A stretch of DNA of 55,243 nucleotides from positions 1-55,243 of the IMG/VR virus record IMGVR_UViG_3300032516_000034. The stretch is one strand, 5' to 3'. The position numbers and the translations under genes were made by a program. Source of the DNA: a virus. This document shows, one piece after another, positions 1 through 37,622 of this stretch. Within the stretch, counting starts at the first letter, position 1; the number at the start of each line of letters is the position of its first letter. Under the pieces are notes generated by a model that was given only the letters and a program-made list of their open reading frames with translations, ran no database searches and was not told where the DNA came from.

Positions 1-2721
1 GACGCCACCGTTGACCGTCATATCACTGCCAATGGAAAGCGTGTTGGATTGTACGGTGAGAACAACAGGGGTGGAAGCCGGAATAGATGTGAGTGTGGAA
101 TACCAGACTGCGTTTGTTGTGAAGTCAGAAGCGTCAGCATACCCGCCCATAATCCACAGTTTAGTATCGAAGAATAACGATTGATGCTCGGCTACTGCAT
201 AGCCCCAACCAGCGGCAGCAGTGGCTTGTGTCCAATTGAGACCATCGGTAGAATACCATACGTCGTTTGTAGCCGGATCATAAGTCCAACCGCCTGTTAT
301 CCATATTGCATTTGAGTCAGCAGCACACCCCAAATAGTTTCTAGGCACCCACGGAGCGGCGGCAGTAACCTCAGTCCAGCTTACGCCGTCTGACGAAGAC
401 CAGACAGAATTTGTTGGAAGTACAGCCTCACCGCCCTCGCCCCCGATCACCCACATCTTGTTAGCGAAAGTAACACATCCGAAATGCCCGTCAACTGGCC
501 AACTGGCACCAGCAGTGGCTTGTGTCCAATTAGTACCGTCTGATGAATACCATACATCGTTAGTGTTAATTCCCGAATTTCCACCCATTACCCACATCTT
601 GTTATCAAAAACTACGGCACCATGCCCTCGTCTAACAGACCACTGAGCGGCAGCCGTAGCCATTGTCCAGTTCGTGCCATCAGGCGATGACCATATATCA
701 TTGTAATGGGTCCCTGAATTGTCACCGCCCAATATCCACATCTGATTATTGAAGGTCACAGTACGGAAGTCACTACGCTTACCCCAACTTGCGTTCTCGG
801 TAGCTTGTATCCAATTCGTACCATCAGCCGAATACCAGACATCGTTGGTGAAATCTGCTATACTGTCAGAATACCCGCCCATCACCCACATCTTGTTGTT
901 GAACACGGTGCTGGCGAAATCATATCGTCCCAGCCATCCAGCACCAGCAGTAGCTTCAGTCCAATTAGCACCGCCTGACACCGATGCCAAAGTACCTTCA
1001 CCGATTGTCAGCGACGAAGAATGGGATACGAGGGAGGTAGTTGACGGATCGTAGCTCAATGCTTTCACGCCGCCCATGTAAATGCTGTTTGTGCCGAGAT
1101 ACAGGTCACGGACAGGGAAGTTTGCAGAGCCCACATCATAGGCATTTGAAGCATTAGGGATGATACTTGACGACATGTTCAGATTGCTTGCTGTGTTGGC
1201 TGTGGTAGCATACTGAGCGTTCGTAGACTGATTAGCCACAGAAGCATAATCGGCATTTGTAGAATAAGAGGCAGTACCTGCATTTGTAGAATAAGAGGCC
1301 GTTCCTGCGTTAGTGGCGTAACCAGCAGTACCTGCATTTGTAGAATAAGAGGCCGTTCCTGCGTTAGTGGCGTAACCAGCAGTACCTGCATTTGTAGAAT
1401 AAGAGGCCGTTCCTGCGTTGGTGGCATACTGAGCGTTCGTAGACTGATTAGCCACAGAAGCATAATCGGCATTTGTAGCCGTAGATGCCACAGAAGCATT
1501 TGTAGCATACCCAGCGACACTGGCATTCGTAGCAAACCCAGCCACTGAAGCATTCGTAGCAAACCCAGCCACAGAAGCATTCGTAGCAAACCCTGCGACA
1601 CTGGCATAGGCTACTGCACCGCTCGATGTGATATATCCATTCGTGGAATGATTACCCCAGCCATAGGCAGCGTTCCAGTTTGCCGCACTTTGGATTTTAG
1701 AATCAGCGATTGTACCGTTGAGAATGTTTGTGCCATTCAGATCATGGATGTAGAATCCTGAACCCCGATACCAGATCGATGTGATTGTCCCATCAACCTG
1801 CACATCACCCTGCACCCACAGGTTCGTGTAGGTTGTCCAAATGTTCGTCACATACAGATTTGTGACATAAGCAAACTGTGCATAGAGGTTGGAGACGGTC
1901 AGGGTAGAAAAACTTCCGCTACCGTTCGACACCGTGCCGCCGCCAAGGTTGATGCTCCCAGCACCCCAGTCGCTCACCGATACCGCGCCCCTATTGGTAT
2001 GATTTACCACATTCCTGAAGTAGTTGCTGTCAACACTACCGCCACCAGCCGCTGGTTGCCATGTGCCATCCGCCCGCAGGAATTTGCCAGCATCGGCGAT
2101 AGCGGCGGTGATAAGTCCAGTTGAGCCCGCACCAGCAAACAAGTTACTTGCCCCTATCGTCACATAGGTATTCGTCACGCCGCTTGACGGGGAATACAGC
2201 CATGCCGCCTGAGTAATCATTTGCGTCTTCACGCCATCGTAAAACAGGATCGGTATTTCCTTACCAGTAGAGCTGTCGATCAGTCCATGCACCTGTCCAG
2301 CCAAACTGACACCTGCGGTCAGCAGCAATCCCAACACAGCACCTGCTATCAGCTTTTTGAACCTCTGCTGGGGCTGAAGCCCCGCAGATTCCTGACAAGA
2401 ATCAACATAACTCGATTCTTCCTCGTGGGTTGTTCCAACCCCGAATAAACCAGAGATACTGTGTCCCGCAAGACACCCTGATAAATTCTTACCACAGGCC
2501 GACTTCATCTGGCTATAGCTGTTAAGAAATAGCCTGTAAAGCCGATCAAGGCGAAACGCAAAAGCGGTGGGATCACCGCTAGAGCAATCGAGTGTGTTTA
2601 TGTCTCTGTCTGTACGACAGTGAGATTTATCACACTCTGCCTGTAAGGTTTTATCCCGAGAAGGCGTTTTCTCTCGGGAACTGGCATACCTTGTCAAAGA
2701 ACGATGTCTATACGTTGTCAT
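1..2721 (-). CDS. Kelch-propeller tail fibre / adhesin with signal-peptide-like segment (3' end off window)
   Basis: Open from ATG 2721 (GGAG 7 nt upstream) to the window edge, 907 codons. Codons 1-121 come from an inserted IS605-type relic. From codon 122 the protein starts KKLIAGAVLGLLLTAG, a signal-peptide-like stretch ending near SLAG. Next come Thr/Asn-rich segments, about 14 short ATNASVAG-type repeats (nt ~1190-1610), and six ~48-residue units with a (K/Q)MWV(M/I)GG core and an NDVWYS(S/T)DG(T/L)NW tail (nt ~60-980). Six such units fit a complete Kelch-type beta-propeller. The role as a host-binding fibre is inferred from position at the end of the virion block and from low-complexity shaft plus propeller layout. 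The original start was probably 2878 (see the 2798-2878 entry). Compare the signal-peptide fibre at 25830-26987. Confidence 0.75.
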   Translation of the reverse strand, partial: MTTYRHRSLTRYASSREKTPSRDKTLQAECDKSHCRTDRDINTLDCSSGDPTAFAFRLDRLYRLFLNSYSQMKSACGKNLSGCLAGHSISGLFGVGTTHEEESSYVDSCQESAGLQPQQRFKKLIAGAVLGLLLTAGVSLAGQVHGLIDSSTGKEIPILFYDGVKTQMITQAAWLYSPSSGVTNTYVTIGASNLFAGAGSTGLITAAIADAGKFLRADGTWQPAAGGGSVDSNYFRNVVNHTNRGAVSVSDWGAGSINLGGGTVSNGSGSFSTLTVSNLYAQFAYVTNLYVTNIWTTYTNLWVQGDVQVDGTITSIWYRGSGFYIHDLNGTNILNGTIADSKIQSAANWNAAYGWGNHSTNGYITSSGAVAYASVAGFATNASVAGFATNASVAGFATNASVAGYATNASVASTATNADYASVANQSTNAQYATNAGTASYSTNAGTAGYATNAGTASYSTNAGTAGYATNAGTASYSTNAGTASYSTNADYASVANQSTNAQYATTANTASNLNMSSSIIPNASNAYDVGSANFPVRDLYLGTNSIYMGGVKALSYDPSTTSLVSHSSSLTIGEGTLASVSGGANWTEATAGAGWLGRYDFASTVFNNKMWVMGGYSDSIADFTNDVWYSADGTNWIQATENASWGKRSDFRTVTFNNQMWILGGDNSGTHYNDIWSSPDGTNWTMATAAAQWSVRRGHGAVVFDNKMWVMGGNSGINTNDVWYSSDGTNWTQATAGASWPVDGHFGCVTFANKMWVIGGEGGEAVLPTNSVWSSSDGVSWTEVTAAAPWVPRNYLGCAADSNAIWITGGWTYDPATNDVWYSTDGLNWTQATAAAGWGYAVAEHQSLFFDTKLWIMGGYADASDFTTNAVWYSTLTSIPASTPVVLTVQSNTLSIGSDMTVNGGV
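1273..1424. repeat. 54-bp tandem repeat in the fibre shaft
   Basis: Units begin at 1273, 1327 and 1381 with agtacctgcatttgtagaat. The first two are near-identical and 54 bp long; the third is partial and diverges after about 40 bp. The repeat encodes the AGTASYSTNAGTAGYATN module of the fibre shaft, and flanking degenerate copies code the same motif. The copy number could change by slippage, which would alter shaft length. Confidence 0.8.
2355..2600 (-). ncRNA. Putative orphan omega-RNA (TnpB guide RNA) in the relic
   Basis: The relic keeps the 3' part of tnpB plus the right end, which in TnpB elements is the source of the guide RNA. Hairpin GGGTTG-GAA-CAACCC (2427-2441) corresponds to GGCTCG-GAA-CGAGCC (27650-27664) in the full element: the loop and the flanking ACGAG are the same and the stem bases change in pairs. 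The terminal hairpin GGGGCTTCAGCCCC is identical in both. The guide would be copied from the fibre gene sequence just beyond 2355. Another hairpin, AGCGGTG...CACCGCT, lies near 2560-2580. The 5' end given here is arbitrary. Function is inferred from TnpB biology. Confidence 0.45.
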
Positions 2722-2736
2722 TTTCTTTCTCCAGAA

Positions 2737-2797
2737 TCAACAACTGATTTCGCCTAACTGCCGGGGATAAATCCCCGCAGATTGCGGCTCACAGATT
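2737..2797 (-). repeat. Left end of the relic with covarying hairpin
   Basis: Imperfect palindrome CCGGGGAT-AA-ATCCCCG (plus strand 2761-2777). The full element has GGGGTT-AA-AACCCC at the same place, so two stem positions changed on both sides. This fits a hairpin recognised as single-stranded DNA by a Y1 transposase of the IS200/IS605 type. Confidence 0.7.
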
Positions 2798-2878
2798 GTT
2801 CAGACGGCGGCTGCCCTTACGGGCATCCACCTTATCCACTCTAGTCTCCTGTTTAACTCGTTTGTTTCGAGTTGGCAT
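2798..2878 (-). pseudogene. Severed 5' end of the tail-fibre gene
   Basis: ATG 2878 has a strong ribosome binding site (TAAGGAGTAGAG). It opens a basic 27-codon stretch (begins MPTRNKRVKQ, ends GSRRLN) that stops at the insertion point, or after two more codons inside the relic (TGA at 2789-2791). If the relic is cut out between CTGAAC and AAAAAGCTG, this reading frame joins codon 122 of the downstream ORF and gives RRLN-KKLIAGAV, a basic N-region followed by a hydrophobic core. I therefore read it as the original start of the fibre, not as an independent small gene. The frame rejoins only for some placements of the ambiguous A-run boundary. Confidence 0.6.
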
Positions 2879-2880
2879 CT

Positions 2881-3363
2881 CTACTCCTTACAAGCCCGCA
2901 ATACTGCGGGTAGTTGACCTTCAGCGAGCTTACGGAAAGCCTCTATGGCTTCGTCTGCTTCTTTCTTGTCAACCTCTGCCAAACGCTTTATCAGCTTTTC
3001 CATCAGGGGAAGGGCCATGTAATAAGTGAGCGGTGCGTCCTTGGGGAACTCGACTTCGTGATCGAGGGATATACGGGTGGCAACCATATCGTTCTGGGTG
3101 TGCTCTCTCTCCACCTTTATGCCAGCCGCCAGCTCCTTTTTGTCCACATCGGATTCCTGCAACCCCTTCTCGTTCGCCCTGCCGTAGCACAGGAAATCGG
3201 TAAAAAGCGTAGCCAGCTTATATGCGCAAGCCTCGGCCTTATCCACTTCGATTCCCTGCTTCTCGGCCCACGCATGAAACTTTTTGTCATCGGGGCTCGG
3301 GTTCTCTGTGAAAAATTCCGCAACCGCCTTTTCCGTATCGCTCAATCCGAAATCCAGTGCCAT
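2881..3363 (-). CDS. DUF5661-like virion-block protein
   Basis: 160 aa; start ATG 3363 with AAGGAGACATC in front, rather than the longer upstream extension. The region around residues 80-130 (ELAAGIKVEREHT...ATRISLDHEVEF...YYMALPLMEK) resembles DUF5661, a small family I recall from phage structural gene clusters with a G..VE.EHT...I.LDHL.E..DYY..L..ME pattern. Its biochemical role is unknown. It starts 11 nt after the stop of the gene at 3375-3740, so the two are cotranscribed. Confidence 0.7.
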   Translation of the reverse strand: MALDFGLSDTEKAVAEFFTENPSPDDKKFHAWAEKQGIEVDKAEACAYKLATLFTDFLCYGRANEKGLQESDVDKKELAAGIKVEREHTQNDMVATRISLDHEVEFPKDAPLTYYMALPLMEKLIKRLAEVDKKEADEAIEAFRKLAEGQLPAVLRACKE

Positions 3364-8585: not shown

Positions 8586-11500
8586 CTATTCCTTACTCTC
8601 AAGTTCGGACACCTTTTCCACGATCTGCTCCACATCGTTCTCGTCCGCTTCAGGCGGTAGGCTCTCTGCTATTGCCTCGGCGAGCTGGTCTGTCTTGCCC
8701 TTGGGCTCGCCATCAGCCTCCTCTGCTTTATCGCCAACGGGTGGAACAGGGGAGCCCTCTGATTCGCCCGTCGGGGCAGTGCCCGGTTCGCCTTCCAAAT
8801 CTGTAAAACCCTGCTGAAAGCCACCGCCCCCGCCACCCATGCCGCCAGCCTGATCTTGTTGTTGCGGTTTCATCTTGACGCCCAGATACCGAGCCACGCG
8901 CTCGACGATGTCAGTCGCATCGACGAGCTTGCGGCCAACTTCCGCGTTGACTTCTTCCGACATACGGTTAGATGTGGCATCCTTCACCGTGAACAACTGA
9001 TTCCGCAACTTGTTATTGATTTCGTCCACGTTCAAATTGAACAGCTCGTACAGTATGTCAACAGGCAAGCTGCCCTTCTGATACAACTGGAATAGCGAAT
9101 CAAACACTTCCGCATTATCCCTGATCGTTAGACGGTTGAATCCAACCTGCGGGTAGATGTATTTCCTGATACCGTTCTTGCCCTCTTCATACCAACCGTG
9201 CGCCTCGCAAATAGGGATGAACAGTTTCTTCTCGATGAAGTTTTTGAGAATCTCTCTGCTCATCAGGAACATGGTATTCAGAATTTCAACCGTTACCTTG
9301 CCACCCGTGAATGTTCCCTCTCCCGTAAGAAGCTCGCGAGTCACACCAAGAGCGGCAAACACCTGATTCTCAATCCGCTCATACTCGCGGTCAAGATCAA
9401 TCAACCTGTCGGTTGTGCCAATCTGCTCCCAGTTGATTTCATAGTTGGTGATGACGGAATACTCGGGATCGAGATACGACAAATCAACCTGTGTTCTGAG
9501 AGCATCCACCTCTTCGGGCATAAGTCCGGGAGCCGAAATCAAATTCTTCGGCGTCATGTTGCGGCTCGCCAGCGAGAGCTGACAGTATTTGTAATGCTCT
9601 TTCTGAAGCATCGGCACCAACACGCGCTCCAATACAGATACGCCCAAGTCCATATACGGACTTCGACGACGAGCAAAATGATGCACAAAACTGCCCGTTG
9701 TCGGATCGGTGTCCATAACAATACAGCCCTCGGTGCGCACCATTTCAACCAGCTCCTGTGGCAGATTCTCCAGAATTTTCTGTTCCAGATCGGCCCGTGC
9801 GCAAGTATTGCCTTCCATCGCCGATGTAGCCGACATCCCAGCAACAATTGTCGCGCCATCTCGGATCATCTTAACGAGCCGCTCGGGGCGATATTCGACA
9901 CGCTTGTTGTCGCTGAACGGATACTGGAATATGTAAACCTCTTCGGGAGGAAGCATAACAGCGCGGCTCCACATCTTCTTTTCGTCGGACCATTCGAGAA
10001 AAACGTAACAGTTGTGTGTGCGAATTTCGTTTGTGCAATATGTGTGCTCCCCGTCTACCTCAAAATTGTAAACATACCCATCGTGGTATTTTCTTCCGAT
10101 GTTGTTCACCTTAAAATAGAATTTACCATCTTTGATTTCGTATGTGAATGTACGATGTTCGCTCGAAGAACCATCAATTTCAATTTCTTTTACACACCCC
10201 TCGGTTAAAGCGCGAATATGATCGGGTTCTGAAACTTTAAGATAGTATATTTCCGAATTGGCTGTTCCGCCCCGTGGCATCTCTATGTCACGCTGTTTTG
10301 ACTTGCCAAAGCAGAACGGAATTCCGCATCTTATTCCCAACTGGAATAGTTGGTGCATTAGCGAATCATTTGTATTTGTAATTCCTGCCACGGCCTCTCT
10401 ATCAGTTTTGGATATGAATCCATCGCTATCAATCATACCTCGCAGCAACCATATTTGCTTACTGGGGGGAAGTTCCATTACCCACTTGGGAATTCGCTTG
10501 CTCTTACAGTCGTATCCAAAATGGTGTGCCCACCACGAACAAAAGATCGGATCATTCACCAGAACATGGAACAGATCATCATTGCATATTCCCCCAATCC
10601 CCTTTTCAAATCCATCGCAGCCGAATACAGACTCCATTACGGAACACAACCTATTAACCTGTGGCGTATCTCTAGCAATACAAATATCAAATGTGGAATA
10701 CTGATAAGATGTTGGCCTCTTATTGTTCCAAATCCATCCATCACCCATCCAATATCCCAGCAAATACATGAATTCGTCATCCACGCAAACAGATACCATG
10801 TCACTATCAAATGTTTTGTTGAATACTCGACCATAAAAATCAGGAGCGTTCTTTTTCTCAGAAACGGGGAACCAACGGATTGAACTGCCGTGATGGCCCC
10901 CGCGTCCTCTTTCTGTGCGGATGACCCCCCTCTTTCTGAGTGAATACGCAACATTCCTCATTCTTACAATATTGTCAGTGCCGAGAATCTTTGAAACGCT
11001 CTCGCATGTCATATCCACCGGTTCGACTAAAGAAGACATCCACGCAATAAGCTTATCTTTTATTTCATTGGTGGTATCAGAACCACCAGTTGGGGTTTTA
11101 TGAGATACGAATACCTGAATTCCATTATTAAGATTCTTGACCTCAACAGAATCATACCTATTAGACAAGATACCTAAGATTTCGGAACGAATATCATATT
11201 CTTCAATATCCTTAACCTCTGTCGAAAATGCGATTCCTATGTAATCATCGTTCCTTATTTCTTTGGCGGGAACCATTTTTTCTTGCCCGTTTCTCAGTAT
11301 GAAAACAGGATGTTCCGATGTCGGTGTGAATTCAATAGCTGGAAGTCTTGCGATATCCAAGTCAATGAGCCATTCCGAAACATGCCTGCGAGAAATAGCA
11401 TTAACTCGGCCATACTGTCCAGATGCAGTTAAAACCCTGTCATTCTCTCGTATCTGACAAATAGGCATCATTCCTTGTTCTGTGTGGACCAGATGGCCTG

Positions 11501-13304
11501 CGGGGAAGCAATTTCCGATCATATTATATTCCCACAGAATATCTTGGCACAGATCAAATGCGTTGATCGCGTCCAACTGATAAGTGAAGAATTCCTGTAT
11601 TTCCTTCTGTAATGCCCTTTTGGCCTTCGGCATCTTTGGCATATTAAGCGTTATCTTGCTCATCGGCAGATCGGTGAGAAGCTCAAGAGCACGACCAATA
11701 TAAGCATCACTTCGACAATTATGCGTAACCATTCCATTACACATGTACGACTTTTCGTCGCCCTCGGCATCCAGTTCAAGATTGTAAACGATATCGTCTT
11801 TTTCCATGTACGATATTTTGTCTATCTTGAATGCTGCATATCCGTTGATAAAAAATGCACAATGCTTGTCACCGTCTGAACCAGAATCAGACCACTTAGT
11901 AGACCCAGTGATTAAAGAATCGGCACTCCAAGAAGGTATTGTTATGTGCCATATTGGATTGTCGCTCCACTTATCATTCTTTCTTTCATACTTAGCAATA
12001 CGACACATCACCCCTGCTGAAATGGCAAGCAATTGAACTTGCGATGCTAAATCATTTGATGCTGTCGCTATTAGGAGTTTGCCCTTATTGCTTCCATTAA
12101 GATACTGATGCCCGTCGCCTTCAGCATATGCGAGCAAAAAGGATTTCTTTGCCTCTATAGTTGAGTCAAGCAAATCCTTGGATAGTTTTTTCTCTGCACT
12201 GTATGAACCAACATGTAAATGACAAAATTCACCCACATTCCTACCACTCACAAGTATCTCAATGTGGTTTTCTCTCCTGCGAACAATGCTCCCGTTCACA
12301 CCGAATACAGATGACGATAGTTCAAGAATTTTCTTACCAACACTGTTTTCTTCGTCCTTGTGCAATGTAAAGGAAACACCAATAGGAACCTTTGTCTTTT
12401 CTTGATGCCATTTCCATCCATTAACCTTAACATCTCCATCATCACTTGTGGTATTAACACACCTCATACCCCAAACAATAGAGCCTTCGGATGCGTAATA
12501 TCCAAGAAATGAGGTTTGCTCACAAGTCATCTGGCTGAATTTTACAGGCTTATATGGAGCCATTAAAACATAATCACCAACTTCTATTCTGTCAGCATTT
12601 ACCCATTCAGGTGAAAAATCCATCTGATCTCTGTAATGACCCTCATCCTTTTTTACCTGTGATTTTTTCAATATGTAAAAAGGATGTTCGTGTGTCACCA
12701 ATGCGGTATTTTGCAAACACCATGCACTAATCTCCACTGCCTTGGAGTCCTTACATTGTCTCTCGATTTTTTCAGCGACACGACGAACACTACCTACACC
12801 CGTTATCACCTCATCACCAACCTGAACATCTTTAATGGATTTCAATGTTCCATCGGACATTAGAACCTGTCCTAAGTGGTTATCATCCAAGTAGTAGCAA
12901 AAATACCTGTACCAGCTATATTTTTCAGCAAGCGTTACTGGCCAATACAGCAAGCCACCGTTCTGCTGATTCATCATCAAAAAATATGTCGGCACATCGT
13001 ATGCACCCGTGCGGTCGCCAAGGCCGAATGCGTAGGAACTTCGGTAGGTATCCAGCTTATAGCCCGACGAATACGGTGCGCTCATGTGAACAAAGTCGAT
13101 CATCATGCCTGCTTGCCGTTCGCGTCCGCCGCCTTCGCCAAAACCGCCAGCTCCCGTTGCTATCCTCTTCGCTATTCTGGCCTTCACTGGATCATACTTG
13201 CCCACGATTGCCCTTGGACGCTTCATACCCGCCACAACATCGGTGGACACAGCATCCTGCGTTGAAGCGACTATCGGATTTCTCACTATTTTTTGCTTTG
13301 CCAT
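8586..13304 (-). CDS. Portal protein precursor with two inteins
   Basis: 1572 aa; ATG 13304 after GAGGATGTGAT. The mature portal would be about 678 aa (residues 1-135, 530-598 and 1099-1572). Joined exteins give WYRYF-CRSDAYIGRALELLTD and WEYNMIGN-CYVFLEW, which fit the dodecameric portals of large tailed phages. The C terminus is Gly-rich and then acidic. The two intervening segments each carry HINT blocks and LAGLIDADG endonuclease motifs (see separate entries). The portal forms the DNA entry channel and motor platform. It lies in one operon after the coiled-coil gene (13306-13872, ends overlapping) and before the HD protein. Confidence 0.88.
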   Translation of the reverse strand: MAKQKIVRNPIVASTQDAVSTDVVAGMKRPRAIVGKYDPVKARIAKRIATGAGGFGEGGGRERQAGMMIDFVHMSAPYSSGYKLDTYRSSYAFGLGDRTGAYDVPTYFLMMNQQNGGLLYWPVTLAEKYSWYRYFCYYLDDNHLGQVLMSDGTLKSIKDVQVGDEVITGVGSVRRVAEKIERQCKDSKAVEISAWCLQNTALVTHEHPFYILKKSQVKKDEGHYRDQMDFSPEWVNADRIEVGDYVLMAPYKPVKFSQMTCEQTSFLGYYASEGSIVWGMRCVNTTSDDGDVKVNGWKWHQEKTKVPIGVSFTLHKDEENSVGKKILELSSSVFGVNGSIVRRRENHIEILVSGRNVGEFCHLHVGSYSAEKKLSKDLLDSTIEAKKSFLLAYAEGDGHQYLNGSNKGKLLIATASNDLASQVQLLAISAGVMCRIAKYERKNDKWSDNPIWHITIPSWSADSLITGSTKWSDSGSDGDKHCAFFINGYAAFKIDKISYMEKDDIVYNLELDAEGDEKSYMCNGMVTHNCRSDAYIGRALELLTDLPMSKITLNMPKMPKAKRALQKEIQEFFTYQLDAINAFDLCQDILWEYNMIGNCFPAGHLVHTEQGMMPICQIRENDRVLTASGQYGRVNAISRRHVSEWLIDLDIARLPAIEFTPTSEHPVFILRNGQEKMVPAKEIRNDDYIGIAFSTEVKDIEEYDIRSEILGILSNRYDSVEVKNLNNGIQVFVSHKTPTGGSDTTNEIKDKLIAWMSSLVEPVDMTCESVSKILGTDNIVRMRNVAYSLRKRGVIRTERGRGGHHGSSIRWFPVSEKKNAPDFYGRVFNKTFDSDMVSVCVDDEFMYLLGYWMGDGWIWNNKRPTSYQYSTFDICIARDTPQVNRLCSVMESVFGCDGFEKGIGGICNDDLFHVLVNDPIFCSWWAHHFGYDCKSKRIPKWVMELPPSKQIWLLRGMIDSDGFISKTDREAVAGITNTNDSLMHQLFQLGIRCGIPFCFGKSKQRDIEMPRGGTANSEIYYLKVSEPDHIRALTEGCVKEIEIDGSSSEHRTFTYEIKDGKFYFKVNNIGRKYHDGYVYNFEVDGEHTYCTNEIRTHNCYVFLEWSDEKKMWSRAVMLPPEEVYIFQYPFSDNKRVEYRPERLVKMIRDGATIVAGMSATSAMEGNTCARADLEQKILENLPQELVEMVRTEGCIVMDTDPTTGSFVHHFARRRSPYMDLGVSVLERVLVPMLQKEHYKYCQLSLASRNMTPKNLISAPGLMPEEVDALRTQVDLSYLDPEYSVITNYEINWEQIGTTDRLIDLDREYERIENQVFAALGVTRELLTGEGTFTGGKVTVEILNTMFLMSREILKNFIEKKLFIPICEAHGWYEEGKNGIRKYIYPQVGFNRLTIRDNAEVFDSLFQLYQKGSLPVDILYELFNLNVDEINNKLRNQLFTVKDATSNRMSEEVNAEVGRKLVDATDIVERVARYLGVKMKPQQQDQAGGMGGGGGGFQQGFTDLEGEPGTAPTGESEGSPVPPVGDKAEEADGEPKGKTDQLAEAIAESLPPEADENDVEQIVEKVSELESKE
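10011..11510 (-). other. Intein 2 of the portal (500 aa, LAGLIDADG)
   Basis: Residues 599-1098 of the precursor. It starts at Cys (CFPAGHLVHTEQGMMPI, a standard block A) and ends THN before a Cys. Block B is TPTSEHPVFIL. Endonuclease motifs are YLLGYWMGDGWIW and WLLRGMIDSDGFI. Block F is VYNFEVDGEHTYCTNEI. All splice residues are present (Cys1, block-B His, terminal His-Asn, +1 Cys), so it should splice; the two Asp-bearing helices suggest a working homing endonuclease. Confidence 0.88.
11718..12899 (-). other. Intein 1 of the portal (394 aa, LAGLIDADG)
   Basis: Residues 136-529. I place the start at Cys136 (FCYYLDDN) because joining WYRYF to CRSDAYIGR makes a sensible portal sequence. Block A (QVLMSDGTLKSI) is then about 4 residues further from the Cys than usual. 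Block B is ALVTHEHPFYIL. Endonuclease motifs are FLGYYASEGSI and FLLAYAEGDGHQY. The end is CNGMVTHN followed by Cys. Block F (VYNLELDAEGDEKSYMCNG) lacks the usual His before Y-x-x-NG. Confidence 0.82.
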
Positions 13305-13974: not shown

Positions 13975-16900
13975 TTATATTCCCGTTGTTAACCGCCGTG
14001 CCAGCATCCCCGGTATACTCACACCGCTCTGGGTGCGCCGCCTGAAGCCATCCAGCCCACGGGGATGCTCTCCATGCTTTTTCAGTTTATTCAGCCGATA
14101 TGTAGCTGCTGTTTCCTGCCGTGGCATACCATCAGGCGTAAACATTCTTGCCGAAACACCCATAGAACCTCCAGCCCCCGTCGCAACAGCATAGGGCCGT
14201 TCGCTCTGATTCTTATGGCACAACCAGACCGCTCTTATCACAGCCTCACAGATATCATCGTGCGCCCCACGTCGATTCGGTGCCCGCACATCAATTTTAT
14301 TCTTCGCTTTTTTCTCGGCCTCCAGCGTAAGAAGTTCTGGAATAAGAACAGGGTGATTCGGAAATTCAAGCAGTTTCTCAGAATAGAGCGTTTTGGCAAG
14401 CTGATAAACATCGCTGTTCAGCGTGTCAGTGAACTGCTCCATCTCAAACTGTTTCAGACGTTGCGACTTCAGAATCTCAGCGAGCGCATAGCCATTATGT
14501 TGATCGAAAATCCCCGCCTTGATTCCGAACCACTGACATAACTCCTTTATCTCTTCAACTATTTCTGCAATGGAAAGCAGTTCTCTCGTCGCGTATTTCC
14601 TGCATCCCGTGTACAAGCCATTTTCAAATTCCCACACATCGGACGACGCCGAAAACCAGACATTCGCATAATCAACCACTATTCTTTGGTTTTGCTTGTT
14701 TTTGTGTACGATACCGATTGCGGTGCCGTCATTTTTGAATCCCAAGTCTATGCCCATGTAATACGAAACATCGTATATGCCGCGAAGCTTTATCGGCTCC
14801 TGAGTGACACACTTTCGGAACTCGGTTTCGTCATCAATCCATGCGGTGATGGTGTCGGAGAACTCGCCGCCGTATTCACACATGAAACCAACCCTGTCTC
14901 TGCGACGGGCCGCAGCCAAGATTTCCGTCGGGATTGTCGGGTTCATCATAGCTGAATACATTTTGAACATCAGCGTGAAATCTTTTTCTTGGAAAGACTG
15001 CTGGAACCTCTCGTAAAACGCACCATACTTCGCGTAAGGCGACGATATGCAGACAACCTTTCCATCACGCCTGAATGAAGCGATTGACGGCGTAAGAGCC
15101 TTATATACTTCCGAACCGCTGAACCTGCCGTTGTTGTCTATGAAATGGGCCATCTCATCCATGATTACTACGATGGCATTTCTTCCGCGCAAGCTGTTGG
15201 ATGCGCATCCACCAGCCATCAGTGTAATATTCGCTTTCGGTTTACCGTAGAGTTTCAGATCGGCATCCGACTGCAAATCGAAATATGTCATTGTGGAATG
15301 TAAACACCGTTCCTTTATGAACGGACACTGCCTAGCCATGTTGTGAATCATGTCGAAAAGGCCACCAGCCTGATCGTCTGCTGGGGCAACATTCATAATG
15401 TAAATCGGAGTATTGGCAGGAAAGCCGTAATACTTCGACGGATCGCCCCGCTTGAGCAGTTTATACAGCTCGTAGTTGGAAATGAATGAAGCCTCTGACG
15501 AATTGTGAGAAAGAATGTCTCCGCCAATAATATGAGTACCAGATACGCATAAATCAACCGTTTTTCTCAGTCCGACAGGGCTCACTGATTCTACTTTGTC
15601 CCATCGAACATCAGATGTCGCCATATCCATCAAGAACTTATCCCCGGTATTGATTCCGTATTGCAGAACCTTTCTCCTACTTGGGGAATACTGCATATGC
15701 AGTCTTTCATTGTTCCCTACACCGTGTTTTCCCATAACATCGGCACATGACAACCCGCCGTCAGTCATTGCCGCCCTAACACGATTCCAAATCCCCCTTG
15801 GAGCAGAATCAAATTCGCTCTTGGATTCCACTCGCAATCTCGCCATATTCACGACCTTAGATACGGCATCTTCTTTTGCGAAGATTCCTATCTCTTTCGC
15901 AAATATCTCAATACTGTCCCTCATTACGATGTCCAAGCCCCAAGAATCAAACACCTTTCCTTTGCACTTTGTTTTTCTGAAACGAACAACAGAGTGGACG
16001 CCGAATTTCAACAAGAGATGTCGAACACCATCAATCATCTTCTTTGATGACGAAGCGTAGCCTATAGATGACTTGGGCACTCCCTTGTGCCCCTCCTGTA
16101 CTCGGCCCGCAACGGTAGCCCACCCATCGCAAGCAAAAAGCCTAGACAGAAAGATTGCGGTCTCTTCCTTAGACGCTTTGAATATACAATCTGGTACTTC
16201 CTTATCTATGGATTTTTTCCCAATACACCCCGCGCCTCTTAGCCACTCCATAACAGCATTTTTTTGACTCCCATCTTGCTTGAATCTACCCGATGCCTTT
16301 AACACATTGTAACCATAATGAAATGAGGTCTTTCCTAGAGGTTTAACCTTGCACATCGGAAATTCTTGTTGAATCAAATGAGTAAAGTCTGCAAGTTTAG
16401 TCGGACAAGCGATTGTCATAGTCGGACGTTCTGTCGTGCCGCCATCACCTTGAAAATAGCCCAGTAATGCCGCCCTGCCCAGACCAATGCCCCCTCTCCC
16501 AAAGAGGCCAACATTATTTGAGATAGCTACCCTGTCTCCCTTTTTCAATTCAGAAAGACTCACAAAACTAGGTTTTTCTTCCCCATCCTTCCACACAAGA
16601 TATGGATGGTTTCCCGATGATATTTCAAATAACCCCCTCTTCGTCTCTAATTCAAAACATCCAACATCTCCATTGTCCCATATTTCAAAATCATGCGTAA
16701 CTTTGCTTTTCAGGGTTTCAGGATCATAGGTTAATATTCCGATATTAGCACAACGATGTTTTCTTTCAAGCAGGTCGCCAAATGTTATAGAGCCCTCCGT
16801 TGTAGCGATACGATCTTCCATAGCCCGACATTTCCCGCCACGCCTGCCAATAGGCATTACCAGCTCTTGAAATATTTTTCCTTCTGTCGTATCGGTATTA

Positions 16901-17166
16901 CATCTTCCTTCTTCATACAAAAATTTCAGGAAGGATTTTTCGGTGAAGGTATAGAGTATCTTTTCATTGATGACATCTGGAACTTTGATGTCCTGCTTTG
17001 TGTCGTCAAGAGGCAGGCCGTAAAACGCCTTGAGTGAAAAACGCTGGACTGGGAACAGCTTGATGTTTAGGCCCCACGGAGCTTCCACGAACGATACAAT
17101 GTCAACAATCTCCGTATTGCCCGAAATGAACTCTTTCGCTATTTCGGCAATGAGGTTATTCGGCAT
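13975..17166 (-). CDS. Terminase large subunit precursor with intein in the Walker A loop
   Basis: 1063 aa; ATG 17166 after GGGAG, 4 nt from the upstream stop. The mature protein would be about 620 aa (residues 1-112 plus 556-1063). The Walker A loop is GRRGGK, cut by the intein, then SSEAS. Walker B is VVIMDEMAHF. The C-terminal RNase H-like nuclease shows MGIDLGFKNDG, VDYANVWF and RGAHDDICEAV with acidic residues in place. TerL powers DNA packaging and cuts the concatemer. Without splicing the P-loop is split and the ATPase must be dead. Confidence 0.93.
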   Translation of the reverse strand: MPNNLIAEIAKEFISGNTEIVDIVSFVEAPWGLNIKLFPVQRFSLKAFYGLPLDDTKQDIKVPDVINEKILYTFTEKSFLKFLYEEGRCNTDTTEGKIFQELVMPIGRRGGKCRAMEDRIATTEGSITFGDLLERKHRCANIGILTYDPETLKSKVTHDFEIWDNGDVGCFELETKRGLFEISSGNHPYLVWKDGEEKPSFVSLSELKKGDRVAISNNVGLFGRGGIGLGRAALLGYFQGDGGTTERPTMTIACPTKLADFTHLIQQEFPMCKVKPLGKTSFHYGYNVLKASGRFKQDGSQKNAVMEWLRGAGCIGKKSIDKEVPDCIFKASKEETAIFLSRLFACDGWATVAGRVQEGHKGVPKSSIGYASSSKKMIDGVRHLLLKFGVHSVVRFRKTKCKGKVFDSWGLDIVMRDSIEIFAKEIGIFAKEDAVSKVVNMARLRVESKSEFDSAPRGIWNRVRAAMTDGGLSCADVMGKHGVGNNERLHMQYSPSRRKVLQYGINTGDKFLMDMATSDVRWDKVESVSPVGLRKTVDLCVSGTHIIGGDILSHNSSEASFISNYELYKLLKRGDPSKYYGFPANTPIYIMNVAPADDQAGGLFDMIHNMARQCPFIKERCLHSTMTYFDLQSDADLKLYGKPKANITLMAGGCASNSLRGRNAIVVIMDEMAHFIDNNGRFSGSEVYKALTPSIASFRRDGKVVCISSPYAKYGAFYERFQQSFQEKDFTLMFKMYSAMMNPTIPTEILAAARRRDRVGFMCEYGGEFSDTITAWIDDETEFRKCVTQEPIKLRGIYDVSYYMGIDLGFKNDGTAIGIVHKNKQNQRIVVDYANVWFSASSDVWEFENGLYTGCRKYATRELLSIAEIVEEIKELCQWFGIKAGIFDQHNGYALAEILKSQRLKQFEMEQFTDTLNSDVYQLAKTLYSEKLLEFPNHPVLIPELLTLEAEKKAKNKIDVRAPNRRGAHDDICEAVIRAVWLCHKNQSERPYAVATGAGGSMGVSARMFTPDGMPRQETAATYRLNKLKKHGEHPRGLDGFRRRTQSGVSIPGMLARRLTTGI
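15502..16830 (-). other. Terminase intein (443 aa, LAGLIDADG-type)
   Basis: Residues 113-555. It starts at Cys113 (CRAMEDRIATTEGSITFG) directly after GRRGGK and ends GGDILSHN before Ser. Block B is FEISSGNHPYLVW. The endonuclease region has LLGYFQGDGGTT and FLSRLFACDGWAT. Block F is TVDLCVSGTHIIGGDI. Splice residues Cys1, block-B His, His-Asn and +1 Ser are all there. The target is one of the most conserved sites of the gene, as is common for inteins. Confidence 0.9.
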
Positions 17167-25829: not shown

Positions 25830-26987
25830 TTAATCAGTCGTGGAAGTCCAAGTTCCGTGGGCACCTGTTATTACCCAGTTGGTTCCATTCGCCAACTGTA
25901 AGGTGACTGTCGCATAGTATTCATTCGTGACACTATCATAGATTGTCGCACCAGCCCCGCTATCAGCAATCACATCAGCATCAGCCGCCTTGATAGTCAA
26001 ACGGTTCGTCCCATTCTTGACAAATGTGTACCATGTCCCTATGTCACTGAACGCCACGCTCGGTAGGTAGTTTGTCAAACTGACTGTCGGCTGCATTACG
26101 AATGTCTTGGCAACATCACCGACAAGCACATTGATATTGGTTGTTGAAACCACTACCGTCCACTTGCCCGGAGAACTAGAACCACCGCCCGATTGATTAG
26201 TGGGATTCCACACACTTCCAGCGGCGTTCCACGCAATCACCTGCCCGTTCGTAGGCGTACCCGTGACAGTCACGCTAACCGCACCCGATGTGCTGGCTAT
26301 TGGCACATTCGCAACAAGGGAAGTTGTCGCAGGGTTATATGACAGAACCTTTGTCCCACCCATCCACACAGAATTCGTATCGAGGTACAAATCACGGAAT
26401 GGCAATGCGGCAGTGCCCAAGTCAACTGTATTGGAACCTGCCGGGATTACTGAACCAGTGTTGGTTAGTGTACAACCACTAAAGTCAACCCAATGACCAG
26501 CCGAAAATGTCAGGTTTGTGTTGATATGCAACCCAAGCCAGTCATTGTAAAATACCGGCTGAACCAAATCATAAAGCGATGAATGATACCCGAGGATTCT
26601 GAAAATGCCATCACCCCAATAAGCTATCTGATAGTTACCACCAGCAGAAGCCACTCCCGCGCTATTGGTAAGTTGCTGATTGCCCATATTCACACTAGCG
26701 TTAGGCGCACCAAAATCGCTGAGCGGCACGGCAGTTTTATTTGTCAAGCCCGCCGCATTGACAGTAGCACTTCCGACAAGATTTGAAGCAATGCCCGCCA
26801 CACCAGCGTACTGAGCATTCGACACACTACCTCCAACTGTCGCAAGGTCATTCGATAGTACAATTTTCGGCTCAAGGAACTTGTATGTCTTGCTGTCATA
26901 CATCACCGTTTTGCCCCAGTTCGTCTGAGCAAACCCGGAACCGCAGGCAAGAATACCAGCCATAATCGCAATCAACATTTTCTTCAT
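25830..26987 (-). CDS. Tail-fibre-like protein with signal peptide
   Basis: 385 aa. ATG 26987 is preferred (AGGAG 8 nt upstream) over ATG 26993 (2 nt). Residues 1-20 (MKKMLIAIMAGILACGSGFA) are a good Sec signal peptide, unusual for a virion fibre. The sequence TVMYDSKTYKFLEP, short AQYAGVAGIASN repeats and DLGTAALPFRDLYLDTNSVWMGGTKVL parallel the shaft of the 1-2721 fibre (VGSANFPVRDLYLGTNSIYMGG), so the two are related. A Gly/Ser linker then leads to a beta-rich C-terminal domain. Confidence 0.7.
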   Translation of the reverse strand: MKKMLIAIMAGILACGSGFAQTNWGKTVMYDSKTYKFLEPKIVLSNDLATVGGSVSNAQYAGVAGIASNLVGSATVNAAGLTNKTAVPLSDFGAPNASVNMGNQQLTNSAGVASAGGNYQIAYWGDGIFRILGYHSSLYDLVQPVFYNDWLGLHINTNLTFSAGHWVDFSGCTLTNTGSVIPAGSNTVDLGTAALPFRDLYLDTNSVWMGGTKVLSYNPATTSLVANVPIASTSGAVSVTVTGTPTNGQVIAWNAAGSVWNPTNQSGGGSSSPGKWTVVVSTTNINVLVGDVAKTFVMQPTVSLTNYLPSVAFSDIGTWYTFVKNGTNRLTIKAADADVIADSGAGATIYDSVTNEYYATVTLQLANGTNWVITGAHGTWTSTTD

Positions 26988-27009
26988 TATCATTTCTCCT
27001 TCTCAATCC

Positions 27010-27564: not shown

Positions 27565-27606
27565 TTTTGAACCTCTGCTGGGGCTGAAGCCCCGCAGATT
27601 CCTGAC
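27565..27606 (-). repeat. Right end of the TnpB element, guide-RNA terminal hairpin
   Basis: Minus strand reads GTCAGGAATCTGCGGGG, then CTTCAGCCCC, ending AGCAGAGGTTCAAAA. The hairpin GGGGCTTCAGCCCC is flanked by CTGC/GCAG arms. Identical to 2355-2396. By analogy with characterised TnpB systems the guide RNA scaffold ends here and the next ~16 nt (beginning GAGCACTACC) serve as guide. Confidence 0.7.
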
Positions 27607-27620
27607 GGGTATTTGACATA

Positions 27621-28676
27621 TCACGCGACATGCCGTATTTCCCTCTCGTGGCTCGTTCCGAGCCAGACACTGAGCACTACCTTGGCAGAGTTTATATCCC
27701 TGTCATGGACTGCGCCACACGCAGAACATACCCAGTGTCTTACCGCAAGCCCGTGAAGGCCCGTCGGGCCAGTTAAGGCCCAACAGCATCCACAGGTCAT
27801 GGTGGTATTTCGTGAACAAACTGGTTCAAGCTTCCTACCGCCTGTACGGCATTTGTAGTTTAGCTTCCGTAGTAAATCAGCCAATGCTGCCTCAGTGATG
27901 GATTTGCCGAATAACTTGGCCATTGCCTTGAAGTTGTCATCACTGAAGTAGATGGTTTTGTAGTTTTCAACAAGCCAGCGGGAAATCTTGTGATTGCGGT
28001 CACTGCGTCTATTGTGCTGTTTTTCAAGCAATCGTGCGGTGAGCTTTTTATCGTGCGCTCGCTGGGCTTGCGCAAGGCGCGTTGCGCCCTTCCGCAGCTC
28101 ACGGGGATTTTCTATTTTTGTGCCGTCAGAAAGAGTCAAGAGCGTGGAAAAACCGGGGTCGATACCAATAGCGGCTTCGGTTTGCTTTACTGGAAACTTA
28201 TGCTCAGTGTCCAGCCAAAGGCAGAGATACCAGCCAGAAGCCCGCCTTACAATACGAGCACATTTGATTTTGGCTTCGGGGATGGCTTGTTTGTGAAAAC
28301 GAAGTGTGCCGAGGCAGGGGATGGAAATACGATTGTCCTTCGGTGGTTTCATTGGATCGGGGAACGGTATTGAGTTCAGCTTGTTACGCTTGCCTTTCAA
28401 GCGTGGCTTCTTGGCCTGCTTTCTGAAGCATCGTTGCCATGCAAGGTATGCCTGTGTCAGTGTGCCTTGCAGCGTGTGACTCGGTATTTCCATGCGATTA
28501 CTGTGTTCGGCAAGAAGATTTTGGAAATCCTTCTGTGAGAAGTAGATTTTGTTGGCAGCGTTGCGCTCGATCTTTTTGATGGCCCAATTGTAAACACCTG
28601 TCAAGTTCCATAACCACTGATTCAGCTTGGCTTCCTGCGCCTTGGCAAGCTTCAGTTTTAAGGTGCGAACGATCAT
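27621..28676 (-). CDS. tnpB: TnpB, subgroup with altered RuvC-II motif
   Basis: 351 aa, ATG 28676 overlapping the stop of the 42-aa ORF (ATGA). RuvC-I is IGIDPGFSTLLTLSDG, with the catalytic Asp. RuvC-II reads YKTIYFSDDNFKAM where the usual motif is (V/I)EDL; the canonical Glu is Ser. RuvC-III is HDRDINSAK, with Asp. Zinc-finger region: TTMTCGCCWALTGPTG...WVCSACG. The TTMTC..TGPTGL..LAVR style and the C-terminal GTSHERE tail mark a TnpB subgroup I recall as having a rearranged catalytic site. It may be an active rearranged nuclease or a guide-only binder. Confidence 0.85.
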   Translation of the reverse strand: MIVRTLKLKLAKAQEAKLNQWLWNLTGVYNWAIKKIERNAANKIYFSQKDFQNLLAEHSNRMEIPSHTLQGTLTQAYLAWQRCFRKQAKKPRLKGKRNKLNSIPFPDPMKPPKDNRISIPCLGTLRFHKQAIPEAKIKCARIVRRASGWYLCLWLDTEHKFPVKQTEAAIGIDPGFSTLLTLSDGTKIENPRELRKGATRLAQAQRAHDKKLTARLLEKQHNRRSDRNHKISRWLVENYKTIYFSDDNFKAMAKLFGKSITEAALADLLRKLNYKCRTGGRKLEPVCSRNTTMTCGCCWALTGPTGLHGLAVRHWVCSACGAVHDRDINSAKVVLSVWLGTSHEREIRHVA

Positions 28677-28801
28677 TTTACTTTCCGTGGCCTATCCCAG
28701 TAGGGGCTTTTACATTTGGGACAAATCCTGATTTCACTCTGGCGTGGAATCCAGTGATGTCCACACCGCTCGCAACCGACTTTCTTGATTTCAATTTTCA
28801 T
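28673..28801 (-). CDS. 42-aa zinc-ribbon protein upstream of tnpB
   Basis: ATG 28801 to TGA 28673. Contains CERCGHHW and CPKCKSPYW, a compact four-Cys zinc ribbon, and a basic C terminus (RPRKVK). Its stop overlaps the tnpB start, so translation is coupled. I have seen similar small zinc-ribbon ORFs ahead of tnpB elsewhere; their function is unknown to me. A regulatory or accessory role is inferred. Confidence 0.7.
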   Translation of the reverse strand: MKIEIKKVGCERCGHHWIPRQSEIRICPKCKSPYWDRPRKVK

Positions 28802-28837
28802 ACCTATAAACATACCTCATCGGTATAGGTGTGTCAA
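28802..28837 (-). promoter_or_regulatory. Promoter of the TnpB element with inverted-repeat operator
   Basis: TTGACA (28832-28837), 17 nt, TATGTT (28809-28814). An inverted repeat ACCTATA...TATAGGT brackets the -10 region, a possible operator for autoregulation by the zinc-ribbon protein or TnpB-guide complex. The CAGTTGTTGACA sequence is shared with the promoter of the second TnpB element (37780-37785). Confidence 0.5.
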
Positions 28838-28893
28838 CAACTGATTTCGCCTAACTGCCGGGGTTAAAACCCCGCAAATTGCGGCTCAGGGCT
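28834..28893 (-). repeat. Left end of the TnpB element
   Basis: Palindrome GCCGGGGTT-AA-AACCCCGC (28858-28875), then a GCAAATTGC palindrome. Compared with 2737-2791 the stem bases differ in complementary pairs while the flanks are nearly identical. Confidence 0.75.
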
Positions 28894-28895
28894 GT

Positions 28896-29249
28896 TCATA
28901 GCTCCATCTCCTGCTGCCGCTGCTCGCACTTGTGCGCCGCCTTGCAGTCTGGATAGTTGCTGCATCCCAGAAACTCGCTGCCTGTTGCCTTGTTCTTTCT
29001 CCTCACTAATCTGCCATAGCAACCCGGCACCCTGCAAGTCTCGCCCTCCTTGGGCGGGGCCTCTGGCAAACGAGGTTCTTCTTCCGAGCCATCGCCTTCG
29101 GGGATCGGATTACCTGCCCGCAGGAATGCCAGAATTATGCGGGCGCACGTTCCATCGGCGAACGAGCCATCCTTGTATTCGATCTCATTGTGCCTGCGAG
29201 AAGTCGAGAACCCACAGTCCCTGAGAAACTTCTTGTCATCGTCGTTCAC
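28896..29249 (-). CDS. Topoisomerase-type zinc-finger protein
   Basis: 117 aa; start read as GTG 29249 (GGAGAGGCG before it), overlapping the upstream stop by 4 nt. Residues 1-45 are helical. A Pro/Glu linker leads to CRVPGCYGRLVRRKNKATG then EFLGCSNYPDCKA (~72-105), the four-Cys zinc finger found at the C terminus of bacterial topoisomerase I, which binds single-stranded DNA. The TnpB element is inserted exactly at its stop codon; the coding sequence seems intact. Confidence 0.7.
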   Translation of the reverse strand: MNDDDKKFLRDCGFSTSRRHNEIEYKDGSFADGTCARIILAFLRAGNPIPEGDGSEEEPRLPEAPPKEGETCRVPGCYGRLVRRKNKATGSEFLGCSNYPDCKAAHKCEQRQQEMEL

Positions 29250-36467: not shown

Positions 36468-37622
36468 CTATGCAAATGCGAACATTGGCACAGATTTAGT
36501 TCCTGCTTCATCCAGCGATACCGTGCTGTCCACAGGCTTAACTTCCCGACTAGCCATCGGTAGTTGTTTTCGTAAGTTAATTGCGGCATTGATGTCCCTA
36601 TCAATTGTTAAACCGCAGTTTTCGCAGTGATATACCCTGTCAAACAATTTCAAATCCTGTTTGATATTGCCACAGCCACTACAGGTTTTGCTCGACGGGT
36701 AAAACCTATCGGCAGTATGTAGTTCAGTGCCATACCATACGGATTTGTACTCGAACTGTCGTCTTGCTTCACCAAAACTGGCGTCCATCAAGTGTCTGGC
36801 CAGTTTGTGGTTTTTTACCATATTTTCCACAGCAAGGTCTTCAATACAGATGGCTTGGCTTTCGCGCACCAGCATTGTCGTGGCCTTGTGTAGAAAATCG
36901 TTTCGTTGACAAGAAATTCGGTAATGCAGTTTGGACAAGCGAAGCTTGGCTTTTTCTCGATTTTTGGAGCCTTTGACTTTTTTGGATAACTGCCGTGATT
37001 TGGATTGCAGTCGTTTCAGGTTTTTAGCCAGTGATTTCGGGCCTTGAAACTGTCGGCCATCGGAAATAGTCATTGTGTTTTTGATTCCCAAGTCAACACC
37101 GAGTTGTTTGTCGCCAGTCTTTGGCTTCAGGATCGGCTTCGCATCAACACAGACGGATAAGAACCATTTGTTCGCAGTTCTTGATACGGTGCCCGACATG
37201 ATTTTGCCTTGGAAGCGCAGTGGCTCTCTCAGGCGTATCCAGCCGATAACTGGCAATCGTACTTTTTTACCTTCGATATGAAATTTTTCATTGGCTATCT
37301 GAAACGAATCATGGATACCCTTCTTGTGAAATATTGGATGCTTAGAAACACCTTTGAAAAAAGCCGTGAAAGCTCTGCCAAGATTAAGGAATGGTAAGGC
37401 ATGGGCGTCACGATGGATCAACTCAAGCCACGGGAATTGCTGGTATTTGATGGCATTAAATTGCTTTCTTAGTTTGTAGGCTGTCGGCTTTTCACCGGCT
37501 TCGTATTGGCGATTCCATTCAGAAAGAGCCCAGTTGTAAACGAACCGAGCGGTGCCGCAGGCTTGTTTGAAATACGCAACCTGCGATTTACTTGGCCTTA
37601 GCTCTATTTTGTGGGCTATCAT
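36468..37622 (-). CDS. tnpB: TnpB nuclease with canonical RuvC motifs
   Basis: 384 aa, ATG 37622 overlapping the stop of a 43-aa ORF. N-terminal helical region with the GTARFVYNWAL motif. RuvC-I is LGVDLGIKNTMTISDG. RuvC-II is AICIEDLAVENMVKN with Glu present. Zinc finger KTCSGCGNIKQDL...HCENCG. RuvC-III is TIDRDINAAINL. The C-terminal tail has PVDSTVSLDEAGT. All three acidic residues are kept, so it should be an RNA-guided nuclease. It differs clearly from the copy at 27621-28676, so the two elements arrived separately. The right end is not well defined (~36400-36468). Confidence 0.9.
   Translation of the reverse strand: MIAHKIELRPSKSQVAYFKQACGTARFVYNWALSEWNRQYEAGEKPTAYKLRKQFNAIKYQQFPWLELIHRDAHALPFLNLGRAFTAFFKGVSKHPIFHKKGIHDSFQIANEKFHIEGKKVRLPVIGWIRLREPLRFQGKIMSGTVSRTANKWFLSVCVDAKPILKPKTGDKQLGVDLGIKNTMTISDGRQFQGPKSLAKNLKRLQSKSRQLSKKVKGSKNREKAKLRLSKLHYRISCQRNDFLHKATTMLVRESQAICIEDLAVENMVKNHKLARHLMDASFGEARRQFEYKSVWYGTELHTADRFYPSSKTCSGCGNIKQDLKLFDRVYHCENCGLTIDRDINAAINLRKQLPMASREVKPVDSTVSLDEAGTKSVPMFAFA

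What the first reader, a model, noticed from the sequence alone, without database searches (positions are those of the whole stretch)
2350..2878. Tail-fibre gene split by a transposon relic whose removal can restore one reading frame
The element sits between a 27-codon ORF with a strong ribosome binding site (ATG 2878) and the fibre ORF. Joining CTGAAC to AAAAAGCTG gives one frame: basic N-region, then KKLIAGAVLGLLLTAG, a complete signal peptide like that of the paralogue at 26987. At present the fibre could be made from ATG 2721 within the relic, with 121 extra residues of transposon origin that would displace the signal peptide. Because IS605-type excision is precise, this could act as an on/off or N-terminal switch for a host-range gene.
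Basis: partly seen in the sequence, partly recalled or inferred. Interest (0 to 1): 0.8.

Follow-up and report, generated by a model that had tools for sequence, protein, structure and literature searches.

The report
Guide-RNA mini-transposon inside phage surface-protein gene
A 442-base mobile element that has lost its protein gene but kept a recognisable guide-RNA scaffold sits near the start of a phage fibre-like gene; clean removal would restore the gene's reading frame, but nothing yet shows that the phage uses this as a switch.

Summary
On the minus strand, window 2798-2357 is a 442-bp IS200/IS605-type element with both end hairpins and both cleavage-guide pairs intact. It has no tnpB. 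A full relative with tnpB lies at 28894-27567.

The boundary is critical: one base decides whether the joined frame is open. Guide/cleavage pairing, checked on multi-copy relatives, puts the target at TGAA (2802-2799) and the right end at TTCAA (2361-2357). The empty site then reads CGT CTG AA|A AAG CTG ATA, in frame.

New here: the inside is more than debris. A covariance model built without it, and without the right end, finds a TnpB omega-RNA scaffold at 2527-2418 (E = 6e-6), missing one arm. Its guide would read the first fibre codons, so its target would be the empty allele.

The switch is not shown: no TnpA in the record, no empty allele found, and the 'tail fibre' carries a signal peptide, which argues against a virion fibre. 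A 121-codon frame from ATG 2721 into the fibre is open beyond chance (12/5000 shuffles). I read this as a tnpB-less, guide-RNA-bearing mini-element: a new member of a known kind.

The parts
2799..2802 (-). Target/left cleavage site TGAA (read 2802 to 2799); expected TAM for a TnpB guided by this element
   Evidence: TGAA precedes all three elements whose left ends were read (relic CTGAA|C, full ATGAA|C, Izimaplasma L046 TTGAA|C); predicted by left guides CAAT/CAAT/CATT under the IS608 pairing rule; rule checked on Slackia copies
2357..2798 (-). 442-bp non-autonomous IS200/IS605-type element (first base C 2798, last base A 2357)
   Evidence: Ends match the full copy; boundaries by guide pairing plus multi-copy relatives
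2738..2798 (-). Left end: guide CAAT (2784-2781), imperfect hairpin CTGCGGGG-ATTTAT-CCCC-g-GCAG, then TTAGGCGAAATCAG
   Evidence: 52/55 identical to the left end of the full copy
2357..2397 (-). Right end: GTCAG, guide GAAT, imperfect hairpin CTGCGGGG-CTTCAG-CCCC-a-GCAG, AGG, cleavage site TCAA
   Evidence: Identical to the right end of the full copy (42/42); GAAT/TCAA are the IS608 right guide and cleavage site
2418..2527 (-). Omega-RNA (reRNA) scaffold, one internal arm deleted; continues through the right end to 2357
   Evidence: Covariance model R1, built without this sequence and without the right end: 32.1 bits, E 6.4e-6 in the window, 33.0 bits unfiltered; hairpin GGGTT-GGAAC-AACCC against GGCTC-GGAAC-GAGCC in the full copy is compensatory
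2337..2356 (-). Predicted guide of that RNA: AAAGCTGATAGCAGGTGCTG, the first fibre codons; would target the empty allele next to TGAA
   Evidence: Position by analogy with ISDra2, where the scaffold ends GUUCAA and the guide follows (PMC10097598); inferred
2799..2878 (-). 5' part of the split gene: strong ribosome binding site, ATG 2878 (alternative GTG 2839), 26 codons plus 2 bases before the element
1..2356 (-). 3' part of the split gene: hydrophobic segment LIAGAVLGLLLTAGV, fibre-type repeats, Kelch repeats; runs off the contig
   Evidence: (Kelch_1 E 1.6e-24)
2358..2721 (-). 121 codons of the element open from ATG 2721 (GGAG-AAAGAAAA-ATG) into the fibre frame; possible present start
   Evidence: 12/5000 dinucleotide shuffles stay open in this frame; other frames hold 4 and 11 stops; no homologue
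27567..28894 (-). Full relative of the element (1328 bp) with the tnpB ORF 28676-27621
   Evidence: OrfB_IS605, Cas12f1-like_TNB; guided_TnpB
25830..26993 (-). Paralogue of the fibre with its own N-terminal signal peptide
   Evidence: 57% over 54 aa, E 4e-16; N-terminus MIMKKMLIAIMAGILACGSGFAQ

Best explanation
It is a non-autonomous IS200/IS605-type mini-element. It has lost tnpB but kept both single-strand hairpin ends, both cleavage-guide pairs and an omega-RNA scaffold. Shown by sequence: ends, scaffold, and (given the family's cutting rule) boundaries and an in-frame empty site. Inferred: TnpA supplied in trans (host or co-resident element) inserted it after TGAA in the coding sequence of the fibre-like gene, next to the codons for the signal peptide. 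The RNA it encodes, ending in the first fibre codons, can load a TnpB made in trans (candidate: the copy at 27621-28676) and direct it to any empty TGAA|AAAGCTG... allele, which favours retention of the element (peel, paste and copy). The element itself is protected because its guide sequence is preceded by TTCAA and not TGAA. While inserted, the original start is cut off from the fibre; expression, if any, would be from ATG 2721 as a fusion with an extra 121 residues, or from an internal GTG/TTG. Precise excision would restore the original protein. Whether that happens often enough to be a switch is unknown.
For: Two-ended match to a tnpB-bearing relative in the same record. The left guides CAAT (relic, full copy) and CATT (Izimaplasma L046) vary only at the third base, which is not one of the pairs I take from the IS608 structure paper (base 2 with guide 1, base 1 with guide 2, base 4 with guide 4; part read, part inferred); these pairs predict TG.A for the cleavage site, and TGAA is found each time. 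Multi-copy test: in three Streptomyces copies (L055-L057) identity ends exactly after TCAA; in two Slackia copies (L051/L052) left guide AAAA goes with TTAT shared by both flanks. ISDra2 omega-RNA has GUUCAA just before the guide. The TGAA|/TTCAA| join obeys this rule and is in frame. Scaffold found by an independent model, E 6.4e-6; the model itself has 15 of 39 pairs with compensatory change. tnpB-less IS605-type elements with near-terminal palindromes (PATEs) are known (PMC3119063).
Against: No TnpA in the record, which is linear and may be incomplete. No expression data; no promoter-like site in 2200-3000. The 5' half of the element (about 2737-2528) matches nothing, so its origin is unexplained. 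The only candidate TnpB of the same family lacks the RuvC-II glutamate, so cleavage-driven retention is uncertain.
Confidence: 0.8

Rival explanations
1. Reversible switch: excision and re-insertion of the element turn a host-interaction protein on and off, or swap its N-terminus, within the phage population.
For: Both ends look competent, excision in this family is precise and can be frequent in ISDra2 (PMC2806898), and the empty site is in frame. The frame from ATG 2721 gives an alternative N-terminus.
Against: No TnpA in the record, no empty allele. Re-insertion at exactly this TGAA is not expected, because TGAA is a common 4-mer, so the process would be one-way unless TnpB restores the copy. 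The virion role of the protein is unproven.
Confidence: 0.12
2. Domesticated insert: the element now supplies the start and a new 121-residue N-terminus of the fibre protein and is kept for its coding sequence, not for mobility.
For: Frame open 121 codons, 12/5000 in shuffles; good ribosome binding site before ATG 2721.
Against: The hydrophobic segment would then be internal at residue 124; the peptide has no homologue; a terminator-like hairpin lies inside it (2580-2563, though one is expected by chance); strong RNA folding (z -3.3) may by itself limit stops.
Confidence: 0.15
3. Dead remnant in a dying gene: a passive, decaying insertion in a fibre gene that is no longer made.
For: tnpB gone, one arm of the scaffold deleted, no promoter-like site found.
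Against: Right end identical and left end 95% identical to the full copy, scaffold stems keep pairing through base changes, fibre frame open for 785 further codons.
Confidence: 0.2
4. An RNA-level intron-like element (IStron) that is spliced out of the mRNA, so that the gene is never off.
For: IS605-type IStrons exist (own knowledge); splicing at these borders would restore the frame; the same phage carries inteins in its portal and terminase genes, so it tolerates self-removing inserts.
Against: No group I or II intron at gathering threshold in the window or at E up to 1 in 2300-2900.
Confidence: 0.03

Closest known systems
IS200/IS605 elements IS608 and ISDra2 (TnpA-mobilised, single-strand)
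   Same: Subterminal imperfect hairpins with a bulge; right guide GAAT with cleavage site TCAA as in IS608; right end GGTTCAA as in ISDra2; insertion 3' to a short fixed target; no target duplication
   Different: Target TGAA instead of TTAC/TTGAT; no tnpA and, in the element itself, no tnpB
PATEs (palindrome-associated transposable elements, PMC3119063)
   Same: IS605-type ends, too short for a transposase, must be mobilised in trans
   Different: Here an omega-RNA scaffold is still recognisable and a related full element is in the same 55-kb record; only one copy is seen
TnpB-omega-RNA systems (ISDra2 reRNA, PMC8612924, PMC10097598)
   Same: Scaffold fused to the right end, guide read from the flank, GAA upstream that can pair with UUC at the right end (79 nt before the end here, about 105 in ISDra2)
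   Different: No tnpB in cis; one scaffold arm deleted; the candidate TnpB in trans has Ser in place of the RuvC-II Glu
TldR, phage-borne nuclease-dead TnpB repressors of flagellin (PMC13418256)
   Same: Phage-borne TnpB-family protein with a changed RuvC site plus guide RNA
   Different: Guide here points at the phage's own fibre gene; the elements keep transposon ends; no repression shown

Membership tests
IS200/IS605 element (ends) | Subterminal imperfect hairpin at both ends, same strand | tested here: met
IS200/IS605 element (ends) | 4-nt guides 5' of each hairpin that pair with left and right cleavage sites | tested here: met
   GAAT/TCAA right, CAAT/TGAA left; rule from PMC5934647, checked on multi-copy relatives
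IS200/IS605 element (ends) | Fixed short target, no target duplication | tested here: met
   TGAA before three family elements, no duplication at the right flank
IS200/IS605 element (autonomous) | tnpA (Y1 HUH transposase) | tested here: not met
   PF01797 absent from the record; controls ring. Hence called non-autonomous
IS200/IS605 element (mobility) | Excision by TnpA leaves a clean donor joint | not testable with these tools
   no empty allele found
TnpB omega-RNA | Conserved scaffold structure ending at the right end | tested here: met
   one arm deleted
TnpB omega-RNA | Transcribed and bound by TnpB | not testable with these tools
   needs RNA-seq or pull-down
Group I/II intron or IStron | Intron core recognised by Rfam models | tested here: not met
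TldR | Inactivated RuvC triad | tested here: inconclusive
   For the TnpB at 28676-27621: RuvC-II Glu is Ser in it and in L027, L046/L047 and L048, and no Glu sits at the E_alt position, but a Glu in KS(I/V).EA is conserved and might substitute
TldR | Loss of transposon ends and coupling to a non-transposon gene | tested here: not met
   full copy keeps left and right ends

The most novel reading that the evidence does not exclude
The phage carries a split RNA-guided system: a mobile TnpB subfamily with an altered RuvC site (28676-27621) and a separate guide RNA from the mini-element, aimed at the uninterrupted form of its own fibre gene. It would bind or cut empty alleles in sister or superinfecting phages, so that the interrupted allele drives itself through the phage population or silences competitors' fibres.
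Probability: 0.06. Interest if true: 0.8.

Novelty: new member of a known kind. Interest (0 to 1): 0.42.

Why it matters
If the guide RNA is made, this is a natural case in which a transposon guide points at a phage structural or surface gene and would act only on the allele without the transposon, a small gene drive inside a phage genome. It also gives exact, testable borders: one base decides whether removal restores the gene. Even as an ordinary insertion it shows that tnpB-less elements can keep the guide-RNA part.

Tried and rejected
Boundaries TGAAC|/TTCAA| (first derived from the conserved C) and TTCAAA| (from an A conserved at four right flanks) were considered and rejected in favour of TGAA|/TTCAA| by guide pairing; the C is then the first base of the element and the A a target +1 preference.

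Residual TnpB protein in the 121-residue frame: a DRDIN-like string was seen, but the alignment is not significant.

Empty site of the Izimaplasma element as a direct boundary test: flanks found only in the two MAGs that carry the insertion.

Related phages: upstream gene, 768-aa protein and fibre gave no hits in named phages, and the upstream gene none in IMG/VR. IMG/VR fibre hits share only a short WNAAYGWGNH-type repeat or the 49% motif of L079, and nearly all start without a signal peptide.

Exact-match scans for the right end and for the fibre start found nothing. DNA search of the element in phages and plasmids: none. Introns: none.

Full report
The window is a 55,243-base linear virus record. 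On the minus strand a gene with a strong ribosome binding site (ATG 2878) is interrupted after 26 codons plus two bases by a segment whose ends match, at 52/55 and 42/42 bases, a second element in the same record. That second element, 28894-27567, carries a tnpB gene (Pfam OrfB_IS605 and Cas12f1-like_TNB; NCBIfam guided_TnpB). Downstream of the segment the frame runs on as a fibre-like protein with repeats and Kelch motifs to the contig edge.

Boundaries. This point decides the finding, because moving one border by one base shifts the joined frame. IS200/IS605 ends are cut where a cleavage site pairs with a 4-nt guide just 5' of each hairpin (IS608: TCAA with GAAT, TTAC with AAAG; PMC5934647). 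I read the pairs as base 2 with guide 1, base 1 with guide 2, base 4 with guide 4; part of this is stated in that paper and part is my inference. Here the right guide is GAAT, so the cut is after TCAA. ISDra2 gives the same end: its omega-RNA is GUUCAA just before the guide (PMC10097598). The left guides are CAAT in the relic and the full copy and CATT in a 73% identical element of Izimaplasma (L046). They predict TG.A, and TGAA is present in all three.

I checked the rule on relatives with several copies. Three Streptomyces copies lose identity exactly after TCAA. Two Slackia copies with left guide AAAA share TTAT, as predicted. The element is therefore 2798-2357, 442 bp. The empty site reads CGT CTG AA|A AAG CTG ATA GCA and gives MPTRNKRVKQETRVDKVDARKGSRRLKKLIAGAVLGLLLTAGVSLAGQ, in frame. 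No direct empty site was found, so this is inference from well-tested chemistry.

Contents. The inside is not a recognisable TnpB protein remnant: the 121-residue frame has no significant similarity to TnpB (61/500 shuffles score as high) and no Pfam match. It is an RNA remnant. I aligned the 3' tnpB regions of the full copy and L046, L048, L027, found a consensus fold with 15 of 39 pairs supported by two-sided changes, built a model without the relic and without the right end, and searched the window. The only matches with E below 1 were the full copy and the relic (2527-2418, 32.1 bits, E 6.4e-6; 33.0 bits unfiltered). The relic lacks one internal arm and keeps the GGAAC hairpin through compensatory changes. 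It folds better than shuffles (z -3.3). Its predicted guide is the start of the fibre's 3' part, so it would recognise the empty allele next to TGAA.

Function. What is inferred, not shown: mobilisation by a TnpA from elsewhere (none in the record), use of the RNA by a TnpB in trans, and present expression of the fibre from ATG 2721. The frame from ATG 2721 is open in only 12 of 5000 shuffles, which is suggestive but could also follow from constraints on the RNA.

The protein. The paralogue at 26993 (57% over 54 aa) also starts with a signal peptide (hydropathy only; no dedicated predictor was run), so a signal peptide in the restored gene is credible. But related fibre-type proteins of other phages nearly all start without one, and virion fibres are assembled in the cytoplasm (own knowledge). 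'Host-range tail fibre' is therefore only one possibility; a protein exported to the host envelope is another.

The candidate TnpB. In the full copy and its close relatives L027, L046/L047 (the same insertion in two MAGs) and L048 the RuvC-II glutamate is replaced by serine (YFSDDNFK or YYSDDNFK against the ISDra2 and canonical pattern), and there is no glutamate at the alternative position described for Fanzor-like TnpBs (PMC10711439). This may mean a nuclease-impaired subfamily that still moves; a conserved glutamate in KS(I/V).EA could compensate. It bears on whether retention works by cutting.

Verdict. A real, precisely bounded tnpB-less IS200/IS605 mini-element with a preserved guide-RNA scaffold, inserted in a coding gene whose frame its removal restores. 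Known kind (PATE-like), with a notable guide-RNA content. The switch is a hypothesis with exact borders for a test.

Noticed in passing
27621-28676 (-), with L027, L046, L047, L048: TnpB subfamily in which the RuvC-II glutamate is serine in every member that spans the site and no glutamate sits at the known alternative position; RuvC-I is mostly DPG. Possibly nuclease-impaired but still flanked by transposon ends.
   Followed up: partly
28801-28676 (-), L028; 37749-37622 (-), L027: Small ORFs directly upstream of tnpB: a 40-aa zinc-ribbon-like protein in the full copy and L028, and an unrelated 43-aa basic protein before the third TnpB (36471-37622) and in L027. They may be regulators or accessory proteins of these elements.
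   Followed up: no
8586-13304 (-) and 13975-17166 (-): Portal gene with signs of two inteins and terminase gene with one intein (LAGLIDADG and intein-splicing domains): a phage rich in selfish elements in essential genes.
   Followed up: partly
28895-28898 (-): The full copy is also inserted after ATGAA; its empty site would read ATGAAAAGAGCACTACCG, overlapping the stop of the upstream gene, so TGAA targeting may often hit ATG-AAA start codons.
   Followed up: no
2563-2580 (-): Terminator-like hairpin followed by T's inside the 5' half of the mini-element, whose origin (about 2737-2528) matches nothing else searched.
   Followed up: partly
36471-37622 (-): A third TnpB, of another subfamily with the canonical RuvC-II glutamate (IEDL), close to ISDra2 TnpB (PDB match E 6e-59); its element ends were not determined.
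   Followed up: no
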